A stretch of 64,000 nt of DNA from an uncultured Hyphomonas sp. (GTDB lineage: Bacteria; Pseudomonadota; Alphaproteobacteria; Caulobacterales; Hyphomonadaceae): contig NZ_OY782759.1 of NCBI RefSeq assembly GCF_963678195.1, forward strand, positions 2,604,001 through 2,668,000. Direction: 5' to 3'. A program made the position numbers and the translations under genes. Of the stretch, positions 52,471 to 57,320 are shown piece by piece (position 1 is the first letter of the stretch; each line of letters starts with the position of its first letter). The notes beneath the pieces are model-generated. The model was not told where the DNA came from. It worked only from the letters and a program-made list of their open reading frames with translations, and did not search any database.

Positions 52471-53259
52471 ATGATCCTCCAGCGCCTCGCCACTTCAATC
52501 CGCAAACAGGACTGGTTTACCGTCCTGATAGAGACGCTGATTGTGGTCTTCGGTGTGTTCATCGGTCTGCAGGTCAACAACTGGAACGAGGCGCGACAGC
52601 ATCGGATTGAGGCGGAGACCTCGCGTGAACGACTGATTGCCGATTTGCGCGCTGATCTTGATGCCTTTGCGGTTCGTCGGCAGTGGTACGAGGAAGTCGT
52701 GGCAGCCGCCCTGCGCGTTGATGGCGCTCTGCGGTCCGATCCGCCCGAAACGGTCGAAGAGACGTGGCGGTTTGTCCTCGACAGCTGGATCGCCGGCGGC
52801 GAATGGCCGTTCGCACCGTCGGCGCAGATCTACAAAGAACTTCAGAATGCTGGCGATCTGGACCTTATCGCCAGCGGATCGATGCAACGCCGGCTGCGCG
52901 ACTATTATGAAGACTCTGCCAACGAGATTGAAATATCACTGACATTCAGATCCGCCTATACCGACCTGGCGCGCCAATTGATCGAAGGCCGCGTCGGTAT
53001 GCACATCGCTGACTGTCTGTCAGCGGCCAGTTTCGAGCCCAGCCTGCCAGGTACAAACCCCACGAATTTCTACAAAGACTGTCCGCTGCCAGAAGATTTT
53101 GAGCTCGTTATGCGCTCAGCCGCAAGCCTCCGGGAGTCGGCAGCGCTCCGCCCCCAATTGAACGCGCGTCTGAGCAATCTTTCGGGGCTCCGGTCACTGC
53201 TTGAGTATCTTAACCGACAGGCGGCGTCACTGGTGTCTGATCTGGAGGCAACACGATGA
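52471..53259 (+). CDS. DUF6090-type membrane protein, copy 1
   Basis: A 262-residue protein. The start MILQRLATSI is followed by KQDWFTVLIETLIVVFG and a single membrane helix (about 18-35) ending in QVNNWNEAR, then a long cytosolic or periplasmic helical domain. This is the DUF6090 pattern (short N-terminus, one helix with GVFIGLQ, and a coiled domain), of unknown function. It overlaps copy 2 by ATGA; the N-terminal 40 residues are nearly identical in both, so they arose by tandem duplication while the rest diverged. Confidence 0.8.
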   Translation: MILQRLATSIRKQDWFTVLIETLIVVFGVFIGLQVNNWNEARQHRIEAETSRERLIADLRADLDAFAVRRQWYEEVVAAALRVDGALRSDPPETVEETWRFVLDSWIAGGEWPFAPSAQIYKELQNAGDLDLIASGSMQRRLRDYYEDSANEIEISLTFRSAYTDLARQLIEGRVGMHIADCLSAASFEPSLPGTNPTNFYKDCPLPEDFELVMRSAASLRESAALRPQLNARLSNLSGLRSLLEYLNRQAASLVSDLEATR

Positions 53260-54050
53260 TCCTCCGCCGTCTCACCACCGCGCTGCGCAAGCAGGACTGG
53301 TTCACCGTGGTGATCGAAACGCTGATCGTGGTGTTCGGCGTTTTCATCGGTCTGCAGGTCAATAACTGGAACGCGGCGCGAGTTGAGCGAAACAGCGAGC
53401 AGGTTCTGCTCTTGCGCCTGCAGGAGGAGACCCGCTCACTTCTGGACACACAGAAAAAAGAGCTGGCCGCACAAAGCCCTCGCATTGGGCTGCTCTCAGA
53501 CGCGAATTCCGTCATGTTCTCGCTCGCGCCGTCACGGCCACTGACCGATGATGAGTGCTGGGCTCTGCTCGTCTCACACTGGTTACCCTCGCCCACCGAA
53601 GCATTGTCGAGCCTTGATGAGCTCATTTCATCCGGCCGGTTTGACCTGATTTCCAGCCCTTCCGTGAAGGCGGCCCTCCGCGACTATGCTGTTGTGCAGG
53701 AACGTTCCCGTACTGCGCGGGCAGAAGCGGTCAGCGAACTCTTCCGGCTTCACACCCGGCATCCGGACGCCGTCTGGCTCGAAGTGGGGCGTGCTGAAGA
53801 TGCAGACTACGTTCGTCCAAATGTGTCCCCTGATGACGACGAAGGCCTGGTGTGGCGATATCGATGCGACATTGACCAGATACGCGGGAATAAGGGCCTC
53901 CTCAGCGAGTACAGCGACAACATCGCACGCTTGGAGTCATTCCTCGACCGGTACGAAGACCGCATTGCGGTCCTGACCGTGCTGGATGCTGAACTGGCCA
54001 AGGAACTGGGCACGTCAGGCTCGCGCCGCGAGAGCGATGCCGCGCCATGA
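53256..54050 (+). CDS. DUF6090-type membrane protein, copy 2
   Basis: A 264-residue paralogue of the preceding gene: MILRRLTTAL, then KQDWFTVVIETLIVVFG and QVNNWNAAR. Beyond about residue 45 the two differ strongly, so only the anchor is conserved. ATGA overlaps connect it to copy 1 and to a 28-codon remnant of a third copy. Function is unknown. Confidence 0.8.
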   Translation: MILRRLTTALRKQDWFTVVIETLIVVFGVFIGLQVNNWNAARVERNSEQVLLLRLQEETRSLLDTQKKELAAQSPRIGLLSDANSVMFSLAPSRPLTDDECWALLVSHWLPSPTEALSSLDELISSGRFDLISSPSVKAALRDYAVVQERSRTARAEAVSELFRLHTRHPDAVWLEVGRAEDADYVRPNVSPDDDEGLVWRYRCDIDQIRGNKGLLSEYSDNIARLESFLDRYEDRIAVLTVLDAELAKELGTSGSRRESDAAP

Positions 54051-54133
54051 TCCTCCGCCGCATCACCGTCGCGTTCCCGTCATTCCCTGAAAGCCGGACA
54101 ACTGACCTGATCACGGAATTGGAGCCACAATGA
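54047..54133 (+). pseudogene. 28-codon remnant of a third DUF6090 copy
   Basis: ATG at 54047 overlaps the copy 2 stop (ATGA). The first nine codons read MILRRITVA, as in the two full copies, after which the reading diverges and ends at TGA 54131-54133. That stop again overlaps the next start (ATG at 54130). It looks like a third copy whose middle was lost, keeping the coupling signal at both ends, or a short leader peptide derived from it. Confidence 0.55.
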
Positions 54134-54618
54134 CTCTTGAGCAAATCGCCTATATCGCCCAGATCGCCGGCGTACTCGTCGTCGCTGCGACCCTGATCTT
54201 CCTCGCCCTGCAAGTGCGGCAAGGCACTGATCTTCTGCGGTCTGACGCGCGGCAGACCCAGCTGACGAACGACCAGACCGGTGTCTACAAATTCGTCGAG
54301 TTCCCGGAACTCGGCCGCATCCTGTCACAGGTCGAAACACCGAGTTTCGAAGAAAAGACAAAAGTGATCTTCTGGATGATCGGCCAGATGCGCGCCCGCG
54401 AATATGAGTGGCTGCAATACAAGGCTGGCGCGATGGACAAGGAGTCGTGGGAATCCTATCGCGGTGTCATCTATTTCGTGCTCGGCACCGAACGGGCCCG
54501 CGCGCTGTGGGGCCTGACCTCCGGCTATTTCAATGCCGGATTCACGGCCATGGTCGAAGAGATGATCCGCGACGTTCCACCCATCGAATACTGGGACGAT
54601 CTGCAAGCGATCAAGTAA
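54130..54618 (+). CDS. Hypothetical one-helix membrane protein
   Basis: A 162-residue protein with a membrane helix at about 8-28 and a cytosolic or periplasmic helical domain (RTLG-like YKFVEFPELGRILSQVE, VIYFVLGTERARALW). I do not recognise the family, though similar short anchored proteins are common in marine proteobacteria next to DUF6090 genes. The start overlaps the remnant stop, giving four coupled reading frames. A GC-rich hairpin (GCGGCG/CGCCGC, 54619-54634) follows its stop at once. Confidence 0.6.
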   Translation: MTLEQIAYIAQIAGVLVVAATLIFLALQVRQGTDLLRSDARQTQLTNDQTGVYKFVEFPELGRILSQVETPSFEEKTKVIFWMIGQMRAREYEWLQYKAGAMDKESWESYRGVIYFVLGTERARALWGLTSGYFNAGFTAMVEEMIRDVPPIEYWDDLQAIK

Positions 54619-54703
54619 GCGGCGGTGTCGCCGCGACCTTCAGATTAAACTTCCGCCACGATTGAGATTCCTGCGACGGGAAGCACAGCGTACTACGTTT
54701 GAC

Positions 54704-54710
54704 CTATAAG
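54704..54710 (+). promoter_or_regulatory. Possible -10 element before the RNA array
   Basis: CTATAAG lies 21 bases before the first structured RNA. A matching -35 is not clear. The related TGGATAAA-N-CC occurs before unit 3 (55071-55080) and unit 4 (55219-55229), so these may be repeated promoter-like elements. Confidence 0.3.
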
Positions 54711-54730
54711 CGGTTCGCCGCAACCGGTCC

Positions 54731-54828
54731 CGTTCGCTGTCGCATCCTCCCCTGAAAATGACACAGCGAACCGCCCGCCATACTGTCTGCCTTACCCCCC
54801 TGAGCCCCAACAGACAGCATGGCGGGCA
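54731..54828 (+). ncRNA. Two-hairpin structured RNA, unit 1
   Basis: Hairpin A pairs GTTCGCTGT (54732-54740) with ACAGCGAAC (54763-54771) around a loop containing CCTCCCCTGAAA. Hairpin B pairs GCCCGCCAT (54773-54781) with ATGGCGGGC (54819-54827) and, after one mismatch, CTGTCTG (54783-54789) with CAGACAG (54811-54817), with a C-rich loop. Four related units follow each other in 54731-55383. The architecture resembles CcsR/Cuckoo small RNAs, whose C-rich loops pair with Shine-Dalgarno sequences; this assignment is inference. Confidence 0.7.
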
Positions 54829-54948
54829 CCTCCATTTCTGAGGCGCTTTTCGGCCTGAGATTCCTTACCGGAATTTCACCTCTCACGAACGCGTGAGGGT
54901 CATGGACACCGGCCCCTCTCTCCCCATATCAGTTACACGAGAGAGGTC

Positions 54949-55051
54949 CCGTTCGAAGCGTTTCTTCCCCCCCTGGAAACCGAACGGCGAACCGCCCGCC
55001 ATGTCATCCTGTCCTTCCCCCCCCCCGCGATAGATGACATGGCGGGTTTTT
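54949..55051 (+). ncRNA. Two-hairpin structured RNA, unit 2, with terminator
   Basis: Hairpin A pairs CCGTTCG (54949-54955) with CGAACGG (54981-54987), with inner GTTTC/GAAAC and loop TTCCCCCCCTG. Hairpin B pairs CCCGCCATGTCATC (54995-55008) with GATGACATGGCGGG (55033-55046), 14 pairs without mismatch, followed by TTTTT: a strong intrinsic terminator. The loop has a run of ten C (55017-55026). Stems differ from unit 1 by paired changes. Confidence 0.75.
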
Positions 55052-55110
55052 CTCCCGCCCCCGACAAATTTGGATAAACCTGCGCATAGCAGCGTCATGG
55101 AAATGAGTTC

Positions 55111-55191
55111 CGTTCGCGACGACAGCCCCTGAAACAGTCAGACGCGAACCGCCCGCCGCGCCGATGCCCCTTGCTCCGGCCCGGCGGGCGC
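55111..55191 (+). ncRNA. Two-hairpin structured RNA, unit 3
   Basis: Hairpin A pairs GTTCGCG (55112-55118) with CGCGAAC (55143-55149) around a loop with GCCCCTGAAA. Hairpin B pairs CGCCCGCCG (55150-55158) with CGGCGGGCG (55182-55190), with inner GCCG/CGGC. The core GCGAACCGCCCGCC is shared with units 1 and 2, while paired positions covary. Confidence 0.7.
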
Positions 55192-55273
55192 CTCAATTTC
55201 CGCGCCGCTGAATTTTTCTGGATAAAGCCCCGGACCGGAACGTCTGCTCTGTGAAGTCCGCACTTTGGTCTTC

Positions 55274-55383
55274 TTCGCTGTGGATACCATTTCCCCATTC
55301 TCCCACCGCACTTTGGGGACAGCGAAACCGCCCGCCATGCCAGGTCCAGCCCCCCGGACCAACAGCATGGCGGGCCCCTTTTC
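55274..55383 (+). ncRNA. Two-hairpin structured RNA, unit 4
   Basis: Hairpin A pairs TTCGCTGT (55274-55281) with ACAGCGAA (55319-55326) over a longer, C-rich loop. Hairpin B pairs GCCCGCCATGC (55330-55340) with GCATGGCGGGC (55365-55375), plus inner GGTCC/GGACC with loop AGCCCCCC, followed by CCCTTTT. The 11-base direct repeat CCGCACTTTGG (55258-55268 and 55306-55316) frames its first half. It ends 57 bases before the ABC-F start. Confidence 0.7.
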
Positions 55384-55439
55384 CGGGTCTACCGCTACCT
55401 GCCCTTGCATTCATCACAGGCCCGGTTACACCCCCGCCC

Positions 55440-57320
55440 ATGCTGACCATCACCAACCTCGATTTTCAGGTCGAAGCACGGCCCCTGTTCGAATCTGCCT
55501 CGGCGCAGATCTCGGCCGGCTGGAAAGTTGGCCTTGTCGGCCGCAACGGCACCGGCAAGTCCACCCTGCTGCGCCTGATCCGCGAGGATGTGGAACACCC
55601 GACCAATGACGCCGCGATCCGGCTGAACACCGGCGCCCGGCTCGGCTGGGTCGCGCAGGAAGTCGCGCCGACGGACGAGACCGTCCTCGATGTCGTCCTC
55701 GCCGCCGACAAAGAGCGCCACGCCCTGATGCAGGAAGCCGAGACCGCGACCGATCCGAACCGGATCGGCGAGATCCATGAACGCCTGGTCGACATCGACG
55801 CCTGGTCGGCAGAGGCGCGCGCCGCCGAAGTGCTGCATGGGCTCGGCTTTTCAGACGAAGACCTCTCCCGCGCCACAAAGGAATTTTCCGGCGGCTGGCG
55901 CATGCGCGCGGCCATCGCTGGCGTCCTCTTCTCGCAGCCGGACTTCCTGCTGCTGGACGAGCCGACCAATTATCTGGACCTTGAAGGCGCCGCCTGGCTC
56001 GAAACCTATATCCGGAAATATCCGTATACGGTCCTGATCGTCAGCCACGACCGCGAAATGCTGAACCGCTGTGTGACGCACACAATGGCGCTGGAGCACA
56101 AGAAGCTCTCGATCACGCCGGGTGGTTATGACGACTGGCTGAAACTGCGCGCGGCCAAGCTCGCCCAGCTGGAATCCCAGCAGGCGAAACAGGCCAAGGA
56201 ACGCGCCCACCTGCAGAGCTTTGTCGACCGGTTCCGCGCCAAAGCCTCCAAGGCCCGGCAGGCGCAATCCCGCATCAAGATGCTGGAGAAGATGCAGGAC
56301 ATCTCCATCCCCGTCGCCGACCGCACGACGCCGTTCCACTTTCCGCCGCCGGCCGACAAGCTGGCCCCGCCCATGCTGGAACTGAAGGACGCCGATCTCG
56401 GCTATGGCGAAGACGCGCGTATCCTGTCGAAGGTGAATTTGCGCCTCGACCCGGACGACCGCATCGCCATTGTCGGTGCCAACGGACAGGGCAAGACGAC
56501 TCTGGTGAAATCCATTGCCGAACGCCTGCCCCTGATGGCAGGCAAGCGCGTCACGCCGAAAGCCGTGCGCATCGGCTATTTCTCGCAGGATCAGCTGGAC
56601 GAGCTGTCCGAAGGCGACAGCGTGCTGGACCATGTCCGCCGCCTGCTGCCACCCGACACGCCGCCGGCGAAAGTCCGCGCCGCCGCGGCGGCCATGGGTT
56701 TCTCGGCGGAGAAGGTGGAAACCAAGGTCGAGAAACTCTCGGGCGGTGAGAAGGTTCGCCTCCTGCTGGGCCTCATGTCCCACAGCGCACCGCACATCCT
56801 GATCCTCGACGAACCGACCTCGCACCTCGACATCGACAGCCGCGAGGCACTGATCTACGCGCTGAACGACTTCCCCGGCGCCGTCCTGCTGATCACCCAC
56901 GACGTCTATCTCGCCGAAGCAACGGCGGACCGGCTATGGCTGGTCAAAGATGGCCGCGCCACGATGTATGACGGGGACCTCGAAGACTATCGCGCCCTCG
57001 TCATGAAAGCCGACCGCGCCGAAGGGAAAGCCGCGAAAGCGAAAGAGGCAAAGCCGAAACAGGCCGCGCCAAAGCCCGCCGCCTCTCCGGAAGACAAGAA
57101 ACGCCTCTCCGCCCTCAAGAAGCGCGCCCGAGACGCCGAAGAGCGCATGGAAAAGGCCAACGCCGCCATCGCAAAGATCGACGCGAAACTGGCCGAAGCC
57201 ACGCCGCCGCCGGACGAGCTGGAAAAGCTGCTGAAAACCCGCGCCGCCCAAGCCGAAACGGCCGAGGAAGCCGAGATGGAATGGCTCGAAGCGGCAGAAG
57301 CGTTGGAAGCAGAAGCCTAG
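55440..57320 (+). CDS. ABC-F family ATPase
   Basis: A 626-residue ABC-F protein with two ATPase domains and no membrane part. Domain 1: GRNGTGKST, signature FSGGWRMRAAIA and LLLDEPTNYLD. Domain 2: GANGQGKTT, LSGGEKVRLLLG and LILDEPTSHLD. A linker (about 245-310) is rich in charged helices and the C-terminus (about 520-626) is a Lys/Ala/Glu coiled coil like Uup or YheS. Such proteins act on ribosomes. The start lacks a good ribosome site; the array of structured RNAs just upstream may matter for its expression. Confidence 0.88.
   Translation: MLTITNLDFQVEARPLFESASAQISAGWKVGLVGRNGTGKSTLLRLIREDVEHPTNDAAIRLNTGARLGWVAQEVAPTDETVLDVVLAADKERHALMQEAETATDPNRIGEIHERLVDIDAWSAEARAAEVLHGLGFSDEDLSRATKEFSGGWRMRAAIAGVLFSQPDFLLLDEPTNYLDLEGAAWLETYIRKYPYTVLIVSHDREMLNRCVTHTMALEHKKLSITPGGYDDWLKLRAAKLAQLESQQAKQAKERAHLQSFVDRFRAKASKARQAQSRIKMLEKMQDISIPVADRTTPFHFPPPADKLAPPMLELKDADLGYGEDARILSKVNLRLDPDDRIAIVGANGQGKTTLVKSIAERLPLMAGKRVTPKAVRIGYFSQDQLDELSEGDSVLDHVRRLLPPDTPPAKVRAAAAAMGFSAEKVETKVEKLSGGEKVRLLLGLMSHSAPHILILDEPTSHLDIDSREALIYALNDFPGAVLLITHDVYLAEATADRLWLVKDGRATMYDGDLEDYRALVMKADRAEGKAAKAKEAKPKQAAPKPAASPEDKKRLSALKKRARDAEERMEKANAAIAKIDAKLAEATPPPDELEKLLKTRAAQAETAEEAEMEWLEAAEALEAEA

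What the first reader, a model, noticed from the sequence alone, without database searches (positions are those of the whole stretch)
54731..55383. Four tandem two-hairpin RNAs with covarying stems and C-rich loops (CcsR/Cuckoo-like)
Within 650 bases, the same two-hairpin unit occurs four times (54731, 54949, 55111, 55274). The core GCGAACCGCCCGCC is kept in all (unit 4 has one extra A). Stem positions change in pairs: hairpin A ends CTGT/ACAG in units 1 and 4 and CG/CG in unit 3; hairpin B has CTGTCTG/CAGACAG, GTCATC/GATGAC, CCG/CGG or GC/GC plus GGTCC/GGACC. Such paired change means that RNA structure is selected. Loops are C-rich (CCTCCCCTGAAA, CCCCCCCTGGAAA, GCCCCTGAAA), complementary to GGGAGG ribosome sites such as those of the porin, the symporter-linked 67-aa gene, the cupin and the EAL gene here. 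Tandem RNAs with anti-Shine-Dalgarno loops are known as CcsR/Cuckoo RNAs in Rhodobacter and relatives, usually next to DUF1127 genes, which are absent here.
Basis: partly seen in the sequence, partly recalled or inferred. Interest (0 to 1): 0.88.

Follow-up and report, generated by a model that had tools for sequence, protein, structure and literature searches.

The report
Tandem C-rich-loop small RNAs in Hyphomonas
A bacterium of the genus Hyphomonas carries a row of four related two-hairpin RNA genes, kept by selection in one branch of the genus and matching no listed RNA family, that probably regulate other genes by pairing their C-rich loops with ribosome-binding sites.

Summary
Four two-hairpin units lie at 54732-55375 between an orphan gene and an ABC-F ATPase gene in a Hyphomonas genome. 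Units of this kind occur at one locus per genome in 15 of 42 Hyphomonas genomes, one to four each. Stems covary (35 units: 61 compensatory cells against 21.0 in shuffles; 13 orthologues of unit 2: 17 against 6.0), so a folded RNA is selected. Rfam 15 has no match at the array above its thresholds. Outside the genus nothing convincing turned up. Upstream footprints suggest separate promoters: a 32-bp operator-like element with a -35/-10 pair before unit 2, and TGGATAA-N15-CGTC before units 3 and 4. It is not a Cuckoo/CcsR member: CCUCCUCCC is absent from the window, no DUF1127 gene was found in the genome, and stem bases are conserved. It probably works like those RNAs and like GsrN, by C-rich loops pairing with G-rich ribosome-binding sites, but my target search gave no specific target. 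Transcription itself is untested.

The parts
54643..54682 (+). conserved upstream block of unit 1 (GATTAAACTTCCG...GCGACGGGA), possible regulator site
   Evidence: alignment of 9 genomes carrying unit 1, own included
54703..54710 (+). -10-like element of unit 1 (CCTATAAG); no clear -35
   Evidence: inferred
54711..54726 (+). small extra hairpin CGGTT/AACCG before unit 1 (GGGTT/AACCC in G020 and G021; not kept in G025)
   Evidence: inferred
54732..54771 (+). unit 1 hairpin A, stem GTTCGCTGT/ACAGCGAAC, loop with UCCUCCCCUGAAA
54773..54827 (+). unit 1 hairpin B, stem GCCCGCCATACTGTCTG/CAGACAGCATGGCGGGC
54828..54839 (+). unit 1 3' tail ACCTCCATTTCT; ACCTCC kept in 7 of 9 genomes, own included; resembles the 3' tail of 16S rRNA (that sequence recalled)
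54865..54896 (+). operator-like element of unit 2, TTACCGGAATTTCACCTCTCACGAACGCGTGA, one copy in the genome
54901..54929 (+). promoter of unit 2: -35-like CATGGAC (TTGG or TTGC forms in five relatives) and -10-like CCCATAT
   Evidence: footprint over 13 genomes; function inferred
54937..54946 (+). predicted 5' end of RNA 2, ACGAGAGAGG
   Evidence: position inferred
54949..54987 (+). unit 2 hairpin A, CCGTTCG/CGAACGG plus GTTTC/GAAAC, loop UUCCCCCCCUG
54994..55047 (+). unit 2 hairpin B, probable terminator, followed by a T-rich stretch
55071..55096 (+). promoter-like element of unit 3, TGGATAA-N15-CGTC (6 of 6 genomes with unit 3, own included)
55112..55149 (+). unit 3 hairpin A, GTTCGCG/CGCGAAC, loop with GCCCCUGAAA
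55150..55190 (+). unit 3 hairpin B
55219..55244 (+). promoter-like element of unit 4, TGGATAA-N15-CGTC (7 of 8 genomes with unit 4, own included; not found in G025)
55274..55326 (+). unit 4 hairpin A, TTCGCTGT/ACAGCGAA plus CCCCA/TGGGG, loop ATTCTCCCACCGCAC identical in six genomes
55330..55375 (+). unit 4 hairpin B, GCCCGCCATGC/GCATGGCGGGC with inner GGTCC/GGACC; CCCTTTTCC follows
55404..55442 (+). separate promoter-like stretch of the ABC-F gene, CTTGCATTC...GTTACAC, up to its ATG at 55440; present also in G020 and G021, which lack units 3 and 4
   Evidence: 10 of 11 loci; the other is a contig end

Best explanation
A family of paralogous small regulatory RNAs. Shown: four two-hairpin units under selection for structure, at one locus per genome, found in one Hyphomonas clade, with unit 2 the most widely kept. 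Inferred: each unit is its own gene, transcribed on the + strand from its own regulated promoter and ended by hairpin B. Unit 2 answers an unknown regulator at the 32-bp element, units 3 and 4 an alternative (ECF-like) sigma factor. The exposed C-rich loops base-pair with G-rich stretches, mostly ribosome-binding sites, of mRNAs encoded elsewhere and block or open translation. Several paralogues with different promoters and loops let different conditions reach overlapping target sets.
For: Folding z-scores -4.0 to -7.6. Covariation in 35 units (61 cells against 21.0 shuffled, 16 of 25 pairs with double changes, 0 of 500 shuffles as high; slid controls at most 12 cells; alignment fitted to the model) and in 13 unit-2 orthologues (17 against 6.0). 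Model R2 found units it was not built from in G002, G013, G028 and G036 at E 1e-8 to 3e-11, each behind the same element. C tracts in the loops change length by single bases, which speaks against coding. Unit-2 element, -35/-10 spacing and AGAG 5' end are footprinted. TGGATAA-N15-CGTC precedes unit 3 in 6 of 6 and unit 4 in 7 of 8 genomes. By eye, a run of at least three C is in loop A of 35 of 35 units and in loop B of 34 of 35. In print, a C-rich loop of GsrN in Caulobacter activates katG through its leader (PMC5869019, passages), and NfeR1 silences ntrB through CCUCCUCCC loops (PMC10746234, passages).
Against: No transcript was seen. The consensus scan finds neither a sigma-70-type promoter nor a standard terminator in 54600-55460, and units 1 and 3 lack a U tract. 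One covariation measure, the number of further pair types, is not above shuffles (18 against 20.7, 29 against 26.9, 15 against 16.6). Wobble pairs do not settle the strand (32 GU/UG against 34 AC/CA). TGGATAA-N14-16-CGTC has no other site outside reading frames in the genome, so no sigma regulon is visible. Candidate targets with GGGGAGG sites are mixed genes with no theme and little extra pairing.
Confidence: 0.62

Rival explanations
1. A CcsR-like operon: one stress promoter makes a long transcript that RNase E cuts into four RNAs with anti-Shine-Dalgarno loops.
For: Four tandem two-hairpin RNAs with C-rich loops; CcsR1-4 of Rhodobacter are also four in a row (PMC10253847, passages).
Against: No DUF1127 gene found in the genome. 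Motif CCUCCUCCC absent from the window. Conserved promoter-like blocks stand before the single units, units 3 and 4 can be missing while 1 and 2 stay (G020, G021), and a unit-2 orthologue stands alone in five genomes.
Confidence: 0.12
2. Leader or attenuator elements of the downstream ABC-F gene, above all unit 4.
For: Unit 4 ends 64 bases before the ABC-F start and is next to it in the 8 genomes that hold it.
Against: The ABC-F gene has its own conserved promoter-like stretch right at its start, also in G020 and G021 which lack unit 4. In G013 and G028 the single unit lies more than 1 kb from the ABC-F gene, before another gene.
Confidence: 0.1
3. A small DNA repeat of REP or mobile type, whose palindromes mimic covariation.
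For: Palindromic, GC-rich, intergenic, in several copies.
Against: Model R2 matches only this locus in the genome, and one locus in each of the 15 carriers, in G025 split over two contig ends. Regulatory blocks are conserved with it, and the C-rich side of the loops stays on one strand.
Confidence: 0.05
4. Decoys or sponges: the C-rich RNAs titrate a G-rich partner RNA or a C-binding protein rather than regulating mRNAs by seed pairing.
For: Many loops are plain C tracts of changing length (runs of C3 to C9 in loop A, by eye), which suits titration as well as seed pairing.
Against: Unit 4 keeps a specific 15-base loop in six genomes and unit 1 keeps UCCUCCC, which points to sequence-specific partners.
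Confidence: 0.12

Closest known systems
CcsR1-4 of Rhodobacter and the Cuckoo RNA family, with the CIN1 locus (PMC10253847, passages; the Cuckoo paper PMC4615179 is not held and was not read)
   Same: tandem hairpin RNAs with pyrimidine-rich loops in an alphaproteobacterium; several copies
   Different: no CCUCCUCCC, no DUF1127 partner found, conserved stems, separate promoter-like blocks instead of one RpoH promoter and processing
GsrN of Caulobacter (PMC5869019, passages)
   Same: C tract of about six in a 5' hairpin loop; same order by GTDB (recalled)
   Different: no EcfG promoter pattern GGAAC-N15-18-CGTT on the + strand of the array; no general-stress genes among the five neighbours examined; four copies; a direct sequence comparison with GsrN was not run
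alpha-r14 / NfeR1 and AbcR1/2 of rhizobia (PMC10746234 and PMC7143759, passages)
   Same: trans-acting RNAs with anti-Shine-Dalgarno loops; AbcR1/2 are encoded in tandem
   Different: three hairpins with identical CCUCCUCCC motifs and hypervariable stems in alpha-r14; other loops and conserved stems here; no Rfam match above threshold

Membership tests
Cuckoo RNA family / CcsR | CCUCCUCCC in each hairpin loop | tested here: not met
   0 matches in the window, 0.82 expected
Cuckoo RNA family / CcsR | two to four adjacent hairpins (recalled) | tested here: met
   two per unit
Cuckoo RNA family / CcsR | stems variable in sequence, loop motif constant | tested here: not met
   GTTC/GAAC and CCCGCC/GGCGGG nearly constant, loops vary
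Cuckoo RNA family / CcsR | associated DUF1127 gene (CIN1 locus; described as often found) | tested here: not met
   PF06568 not found in the genome at E <= 0.001; of 14 control genomes the search rang only in E. coli
Cuckoo RNA family / CcsR | RpoHI/RpoHII promoter | tested here: inconclusive
   unit-2 -10 CCCATAT, and TTGG-N17-CCTATAT in G013, resemble it and the groES promoters here (TTG-N18-CYTANNT in 27 of 30 loci), but spacing also fits sigma-70
Cuckoo RNA family / CcsR | match to a family model | not testable with these tools
   no such model at hand; at the array Rfam gave three matches, all below gathering, best E 0.42
GsrN | C-rich 5' hairpin loop | tested here: met
   C5 to C7 in loop A of the unit-2 copies
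GsrN | EcfG-dependent promoter GGAAC-N16/17-CGTT (consensus recalled) | tested here: not met
   no match on the + strand of 54600-55460
GsrN | beside ecfG, nepR, phyR (typical) | tested here: not met
   immediate neighbours only: three orphans without Pfam match, ABC-F, TetR
alpha-r14 / NfeR1 | three hairpins, each with CCUCCUCCC | tested here: not met

The most novel reading that the evidence does not exclude
A multi-input ribosome-site regulator: separately switched RNAs whose loops (UCCUCCC; C5-C9) and, in unit 1, a 3' tail ACCUCCxUUUC like the end of 16S rRNA (recalled) imitate the ribosome's own anti-Shine-Dalgarno sequence. Together they would lower translation of many strong-SD mRNAs under stress, a global and not a gene-by-gene effect, with unit 2 able to change its exposed parts through two alternative partners for GUUCG.
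Probability: 0.12. Interest if true: 0.72.

Novelty: new variant of a known kind. Interest (0 to 1): 0.5.

Why it matters
It adds a new, well-delimited RNA family to a lineage in which my one search of the held library found no small-RNA study (3 papers with all terms, none about Hyphomonas RNAs judging by titles and abstract starts). It is a natural series (one, two and four units, with recognisable upstream regions) for asking how regulatory RNAs duplicate and split their inputs and seeds. If expression is shown, C-loop RNAs of alphaproteobacteria exist in a further family beside CcsR, NfeR1 and GsrN.

Tried and rejected
I used only the Hyphomonas one (L059), which named the genus; the others were not inspected. 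Model R1 from four units modelled only hairpin B and was dropped.

TGGATAA-N14-16-CGTC as a genome-wide sigma regulon: 7 sites (2 in the reversed control), 2 in the array, the other 5 inside reading frames by my ORF listing. An exact RpoH consensus (recalled, Agrobacterium) gave 1 site against 4 in the reversed control, so the RpoH reading was not kept.

Strand from wobble pairs: undecided. Targets: GGGAGG before ATG in the window is at chance. GGGGAGGR-N2-10-ATG is enriched in three genomes (39 against 5, 33 against 7, 36 against 4 in the reversed control), as any SD would be. Of the 39 own sites, 29 start a frame that my rule accepted (at least 50 aa, or a closed one of at least 40), and they show no theme by eye. 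Only unit 1's loop was used for this, in 3 genomes; only the own sites were looked at further.

The weak hit outside the genus (G256, E 0.0086) is a C-loop terminator behind a small reading frame and was set aside. Large searches use stricter filters (in one search only 10 candidates per genome were scored, 37), so far or diverged relatives can have been missed, also in Hyphomonas.

Dropped rows: 3 antisense matches were left out of A4 by the E cut-off. G021 and G025 are not in A5 and A6, so 13 of 15 carriers are; A4 also leaves out G021. ABC-F loci of 30 of 42 genomes went into the tree.

Full report
What is there. Between a 162-aa orphan gene (54130-54618) and an ABC-F ATPase gene (ATG at 55440; Pfam ABC_tran and ABC_tran_Xtn) lie four copies of a two-hairpin unit. 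Hairpin A opens with GTTCG/CGAAC (TTCG/CGAA in unit 4), hairpin B with GCCCGCC/GGCGGG(C/T), and a linker of 0-6 bases joins them. All fold far better than shuffles (z -7.0, -7.6, -4.0, -6.0; one of 200 shuffles matched unit 3, none the others). The genome is a 3.67-Mb single contig. Its genus is Hyphomonas: the 3964-base contig G018:C143, of the same genus code, agrees in length and in the place of its unit with a record titled Hyphomonas sp. UBA5111 (L059).

Chance and selection. DNA similarity to the array region is found in 12 of 42 genomes of the genus. A covariance model from 21 units (R2, my structure) finds units in 15 of 42 at E <= 0.1, at one locus per genome (in G025 on two contig ends). 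In the own genome it finds the four units and an antisense shadow of unit 1, nothing else. Four of the carriers (G002, G013, G028, G036) had no sequence in the model and matched at E 1e-8 to 3e-11. On 35 units (A4, fitted to the model, so leaning towards it) 61 cells change on both sides against 21.0 in shuffles and at most 12 in slid controls, and 16 of 25 pairs show double changes. On the MAFFT alignment A2 (21 units) the figures are 36 against 12.7, and 10 pairs against 6.3 (6 of 500 shuffles as high). On 13 orthologues of unit 2 (A5) they are 17 against 6.0. Against this, the number of further pair types is not above shuffles in any of the three (18 against 20.7, 29 against 26.9, 15 against 16.6). 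C tracts in the loops vary in length by single bases, which speaks against coding.

Distribution and history. R2 in 105 genomes of the family: 15 with matches at E <= 0.01, all Hyphomonas. R3 in 398 genomes of the order: the same 15 and one weak, unrelated-looking hit (E 0.0086). On a tree of 30 ABC-F genes the carriers lie in one clade of 19, with three changes of state (quick method, 7 of 27 inner branches unresolved). Six carriers have four units, G020 and G021 have units 1 and 2, G014 units 2 and 4, and five a single unit. That single unit I take as orthologous to unit 2, since it stands behind the same upstream element. In G025 the contigs break inside the array, so its count is a lower bound. 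Either the array grew from a unit-2 ancestor, or it shrank to it.

Promoters. Before unit 2 a 32-base element, TTACCnnAAnTTCACnnnTCACGAAnGCGTGA, is found once per genome in 13 of 42 genomes (up to 2 mismatches), all carriers. G014 and G028 hold diverged forms. It is followed at near-fixed spacing by a -35-like CATGG (8 of 13 genomes, one of them TATGG) or TTGG/TTGC (5 of 13) and a -10-like CC(T/C)AnAT, then AGAG. This is the pattern of a regulator site next to a promoter (inference). Units 3 and 4 have TGGATAA-N15-CGTC in 6 of 6 and 7 of 8 genomes, a spacing typical of ECF sigma promoters (recalled). Unit 1 has a third, different block. The groES genes of the genus show TTG-N18-CYTANNT in 27 of the 30 fetched loci, so the unit-2 promoter may be RpoH-like, but the same spacing fits sigma-70. 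No EcfG pattern is on the + strand of the array, and the plain consensus scan found no promoter and no terminator.

Loops. Hairpin A of unit 1 shows UCCUCCC(C)UGAAA with small variants, unit 2 UUCCCCC(C)(C)UGG inside GUUUC/GAAAC, unit 3 mostly CCC(C)UGAA, and the lone units GUCCCCCCUCCCCC (G018) and variants. By eye, loop A has a run of at least three C in 35 of 35 units and loop B in 34 of 35, with runs up to C14. Unit 4 has CCCCA/TGGGG around AUUCUCCCACCGCAC, identical in six genomes and similar in G014 and G025. Unit 2 has two possible 3' partners for GUUCG. The first is favoured in a 47-base piece (-15.2 against -11.8 kcal/mol). In G040 one change G to A in the 5' arm is met by C to T in both partners, a single case that hints at two used states; G014 does not fit it.

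How it most likely works. Small RNAs, each from its own promoter, with exposed C tracts that pair with G-rich ribosome-binding sites of mRNAs elsewhere. The mechanism is known for GsrN, where six cytosines in the 5' loop are held to select targets and katG is activated (PMC5869019, passages), and for NfeR1, which silences ntrB (PMC10746234, passages). Shown here: structure under selection, family limits within what was searched, upstream footprints. Inferred: transcription, strand (from footprints and the T-rich stretch after unit 2), termination at hairpin B, targets. The target search was negative in the sense that matters: sites complementary to the unit-1 loop behave like SD sequences in general and fall before unrelated genes.

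Comparison with known families. CcsR RNAs are co-transcribed with the DUF1127 gene ccaF1 from an RpoHI/HII promoter and processed by RNase E (PMC10253847, passages). RNAs of the wider group carry CCUCCUCCC in every loop with variable stems (PMC10746234, PMC3927594, passages). Here the motif is absent from the window, DUF1127 was not found in the genome (the family is 37 positions long and of 14 control genomes only E. coli rang), and stems are conserved. Hence it works like them but is not a member. In Rfam 15 the window has only a tRNA elsewhere, the array three matches below gathering (F6 at unit 1, E 0.72; two others, best E 0.42), and seven relatives none at gathering.

Verdict. A real, new RNA family of a known working kind, with an unusual layout: paralogues in a row, apparently each with its own input. 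Papers were seen as passages (PMC10253847, PMC8307010, PMC10746234, PMC3927594, PMC5869019, PMC7143759); searches are search listings.

Noticed in passing
54865-54896: 32-base element with tandem TTACC/TTCAC half-sites and palindrome TCACG....CGTGA, one copy per genome; binding protein unknown.
   Followed up: partly
54828-54839: 3' tail of unit 1, ACCTCCATTTCT, resembles the 3' end of 16S rRNA (recalled); ACCTCC kept in 7 of 9 genomes with unit 1, own included.
   Followed up: partly
52471-54618: Three orphan genes in a row without Pfam match; by eye, N-termini like that of the third occur beside the single unit in G013 and G028 (L154, L155) and in L288.
   Followed up: no
54951-54992: In unit 2, GUUCG can pair with either of two CGAAC copies; in G040 both copies change in step with the 5' arm.
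   Followed up: partly
L221, middle of the locus: Terminator-like hairpin with loop CTCCTCCCCCCC behind a small reading frame in a genome of another family (G256): a C-rich anti-SD-like loop after a gene.
   Followed up: no
L228, L231, L238, L240, L244, L245, L247: The seven groES upstream regions printed carry TTGACG, a CYTANNT-like -10 and an inverted repeat TAGCAGTC...GAGTGCTAA that looks like the CIRCE element (recalled).
   Followed up: no
window 55404-55442: The ABC-F gene may be transcribed as a leaderless mRNA: promoter-like CTTGC(A/T)TTC...GTTACAC about 10 bases before the ATG.
   Followed up: no
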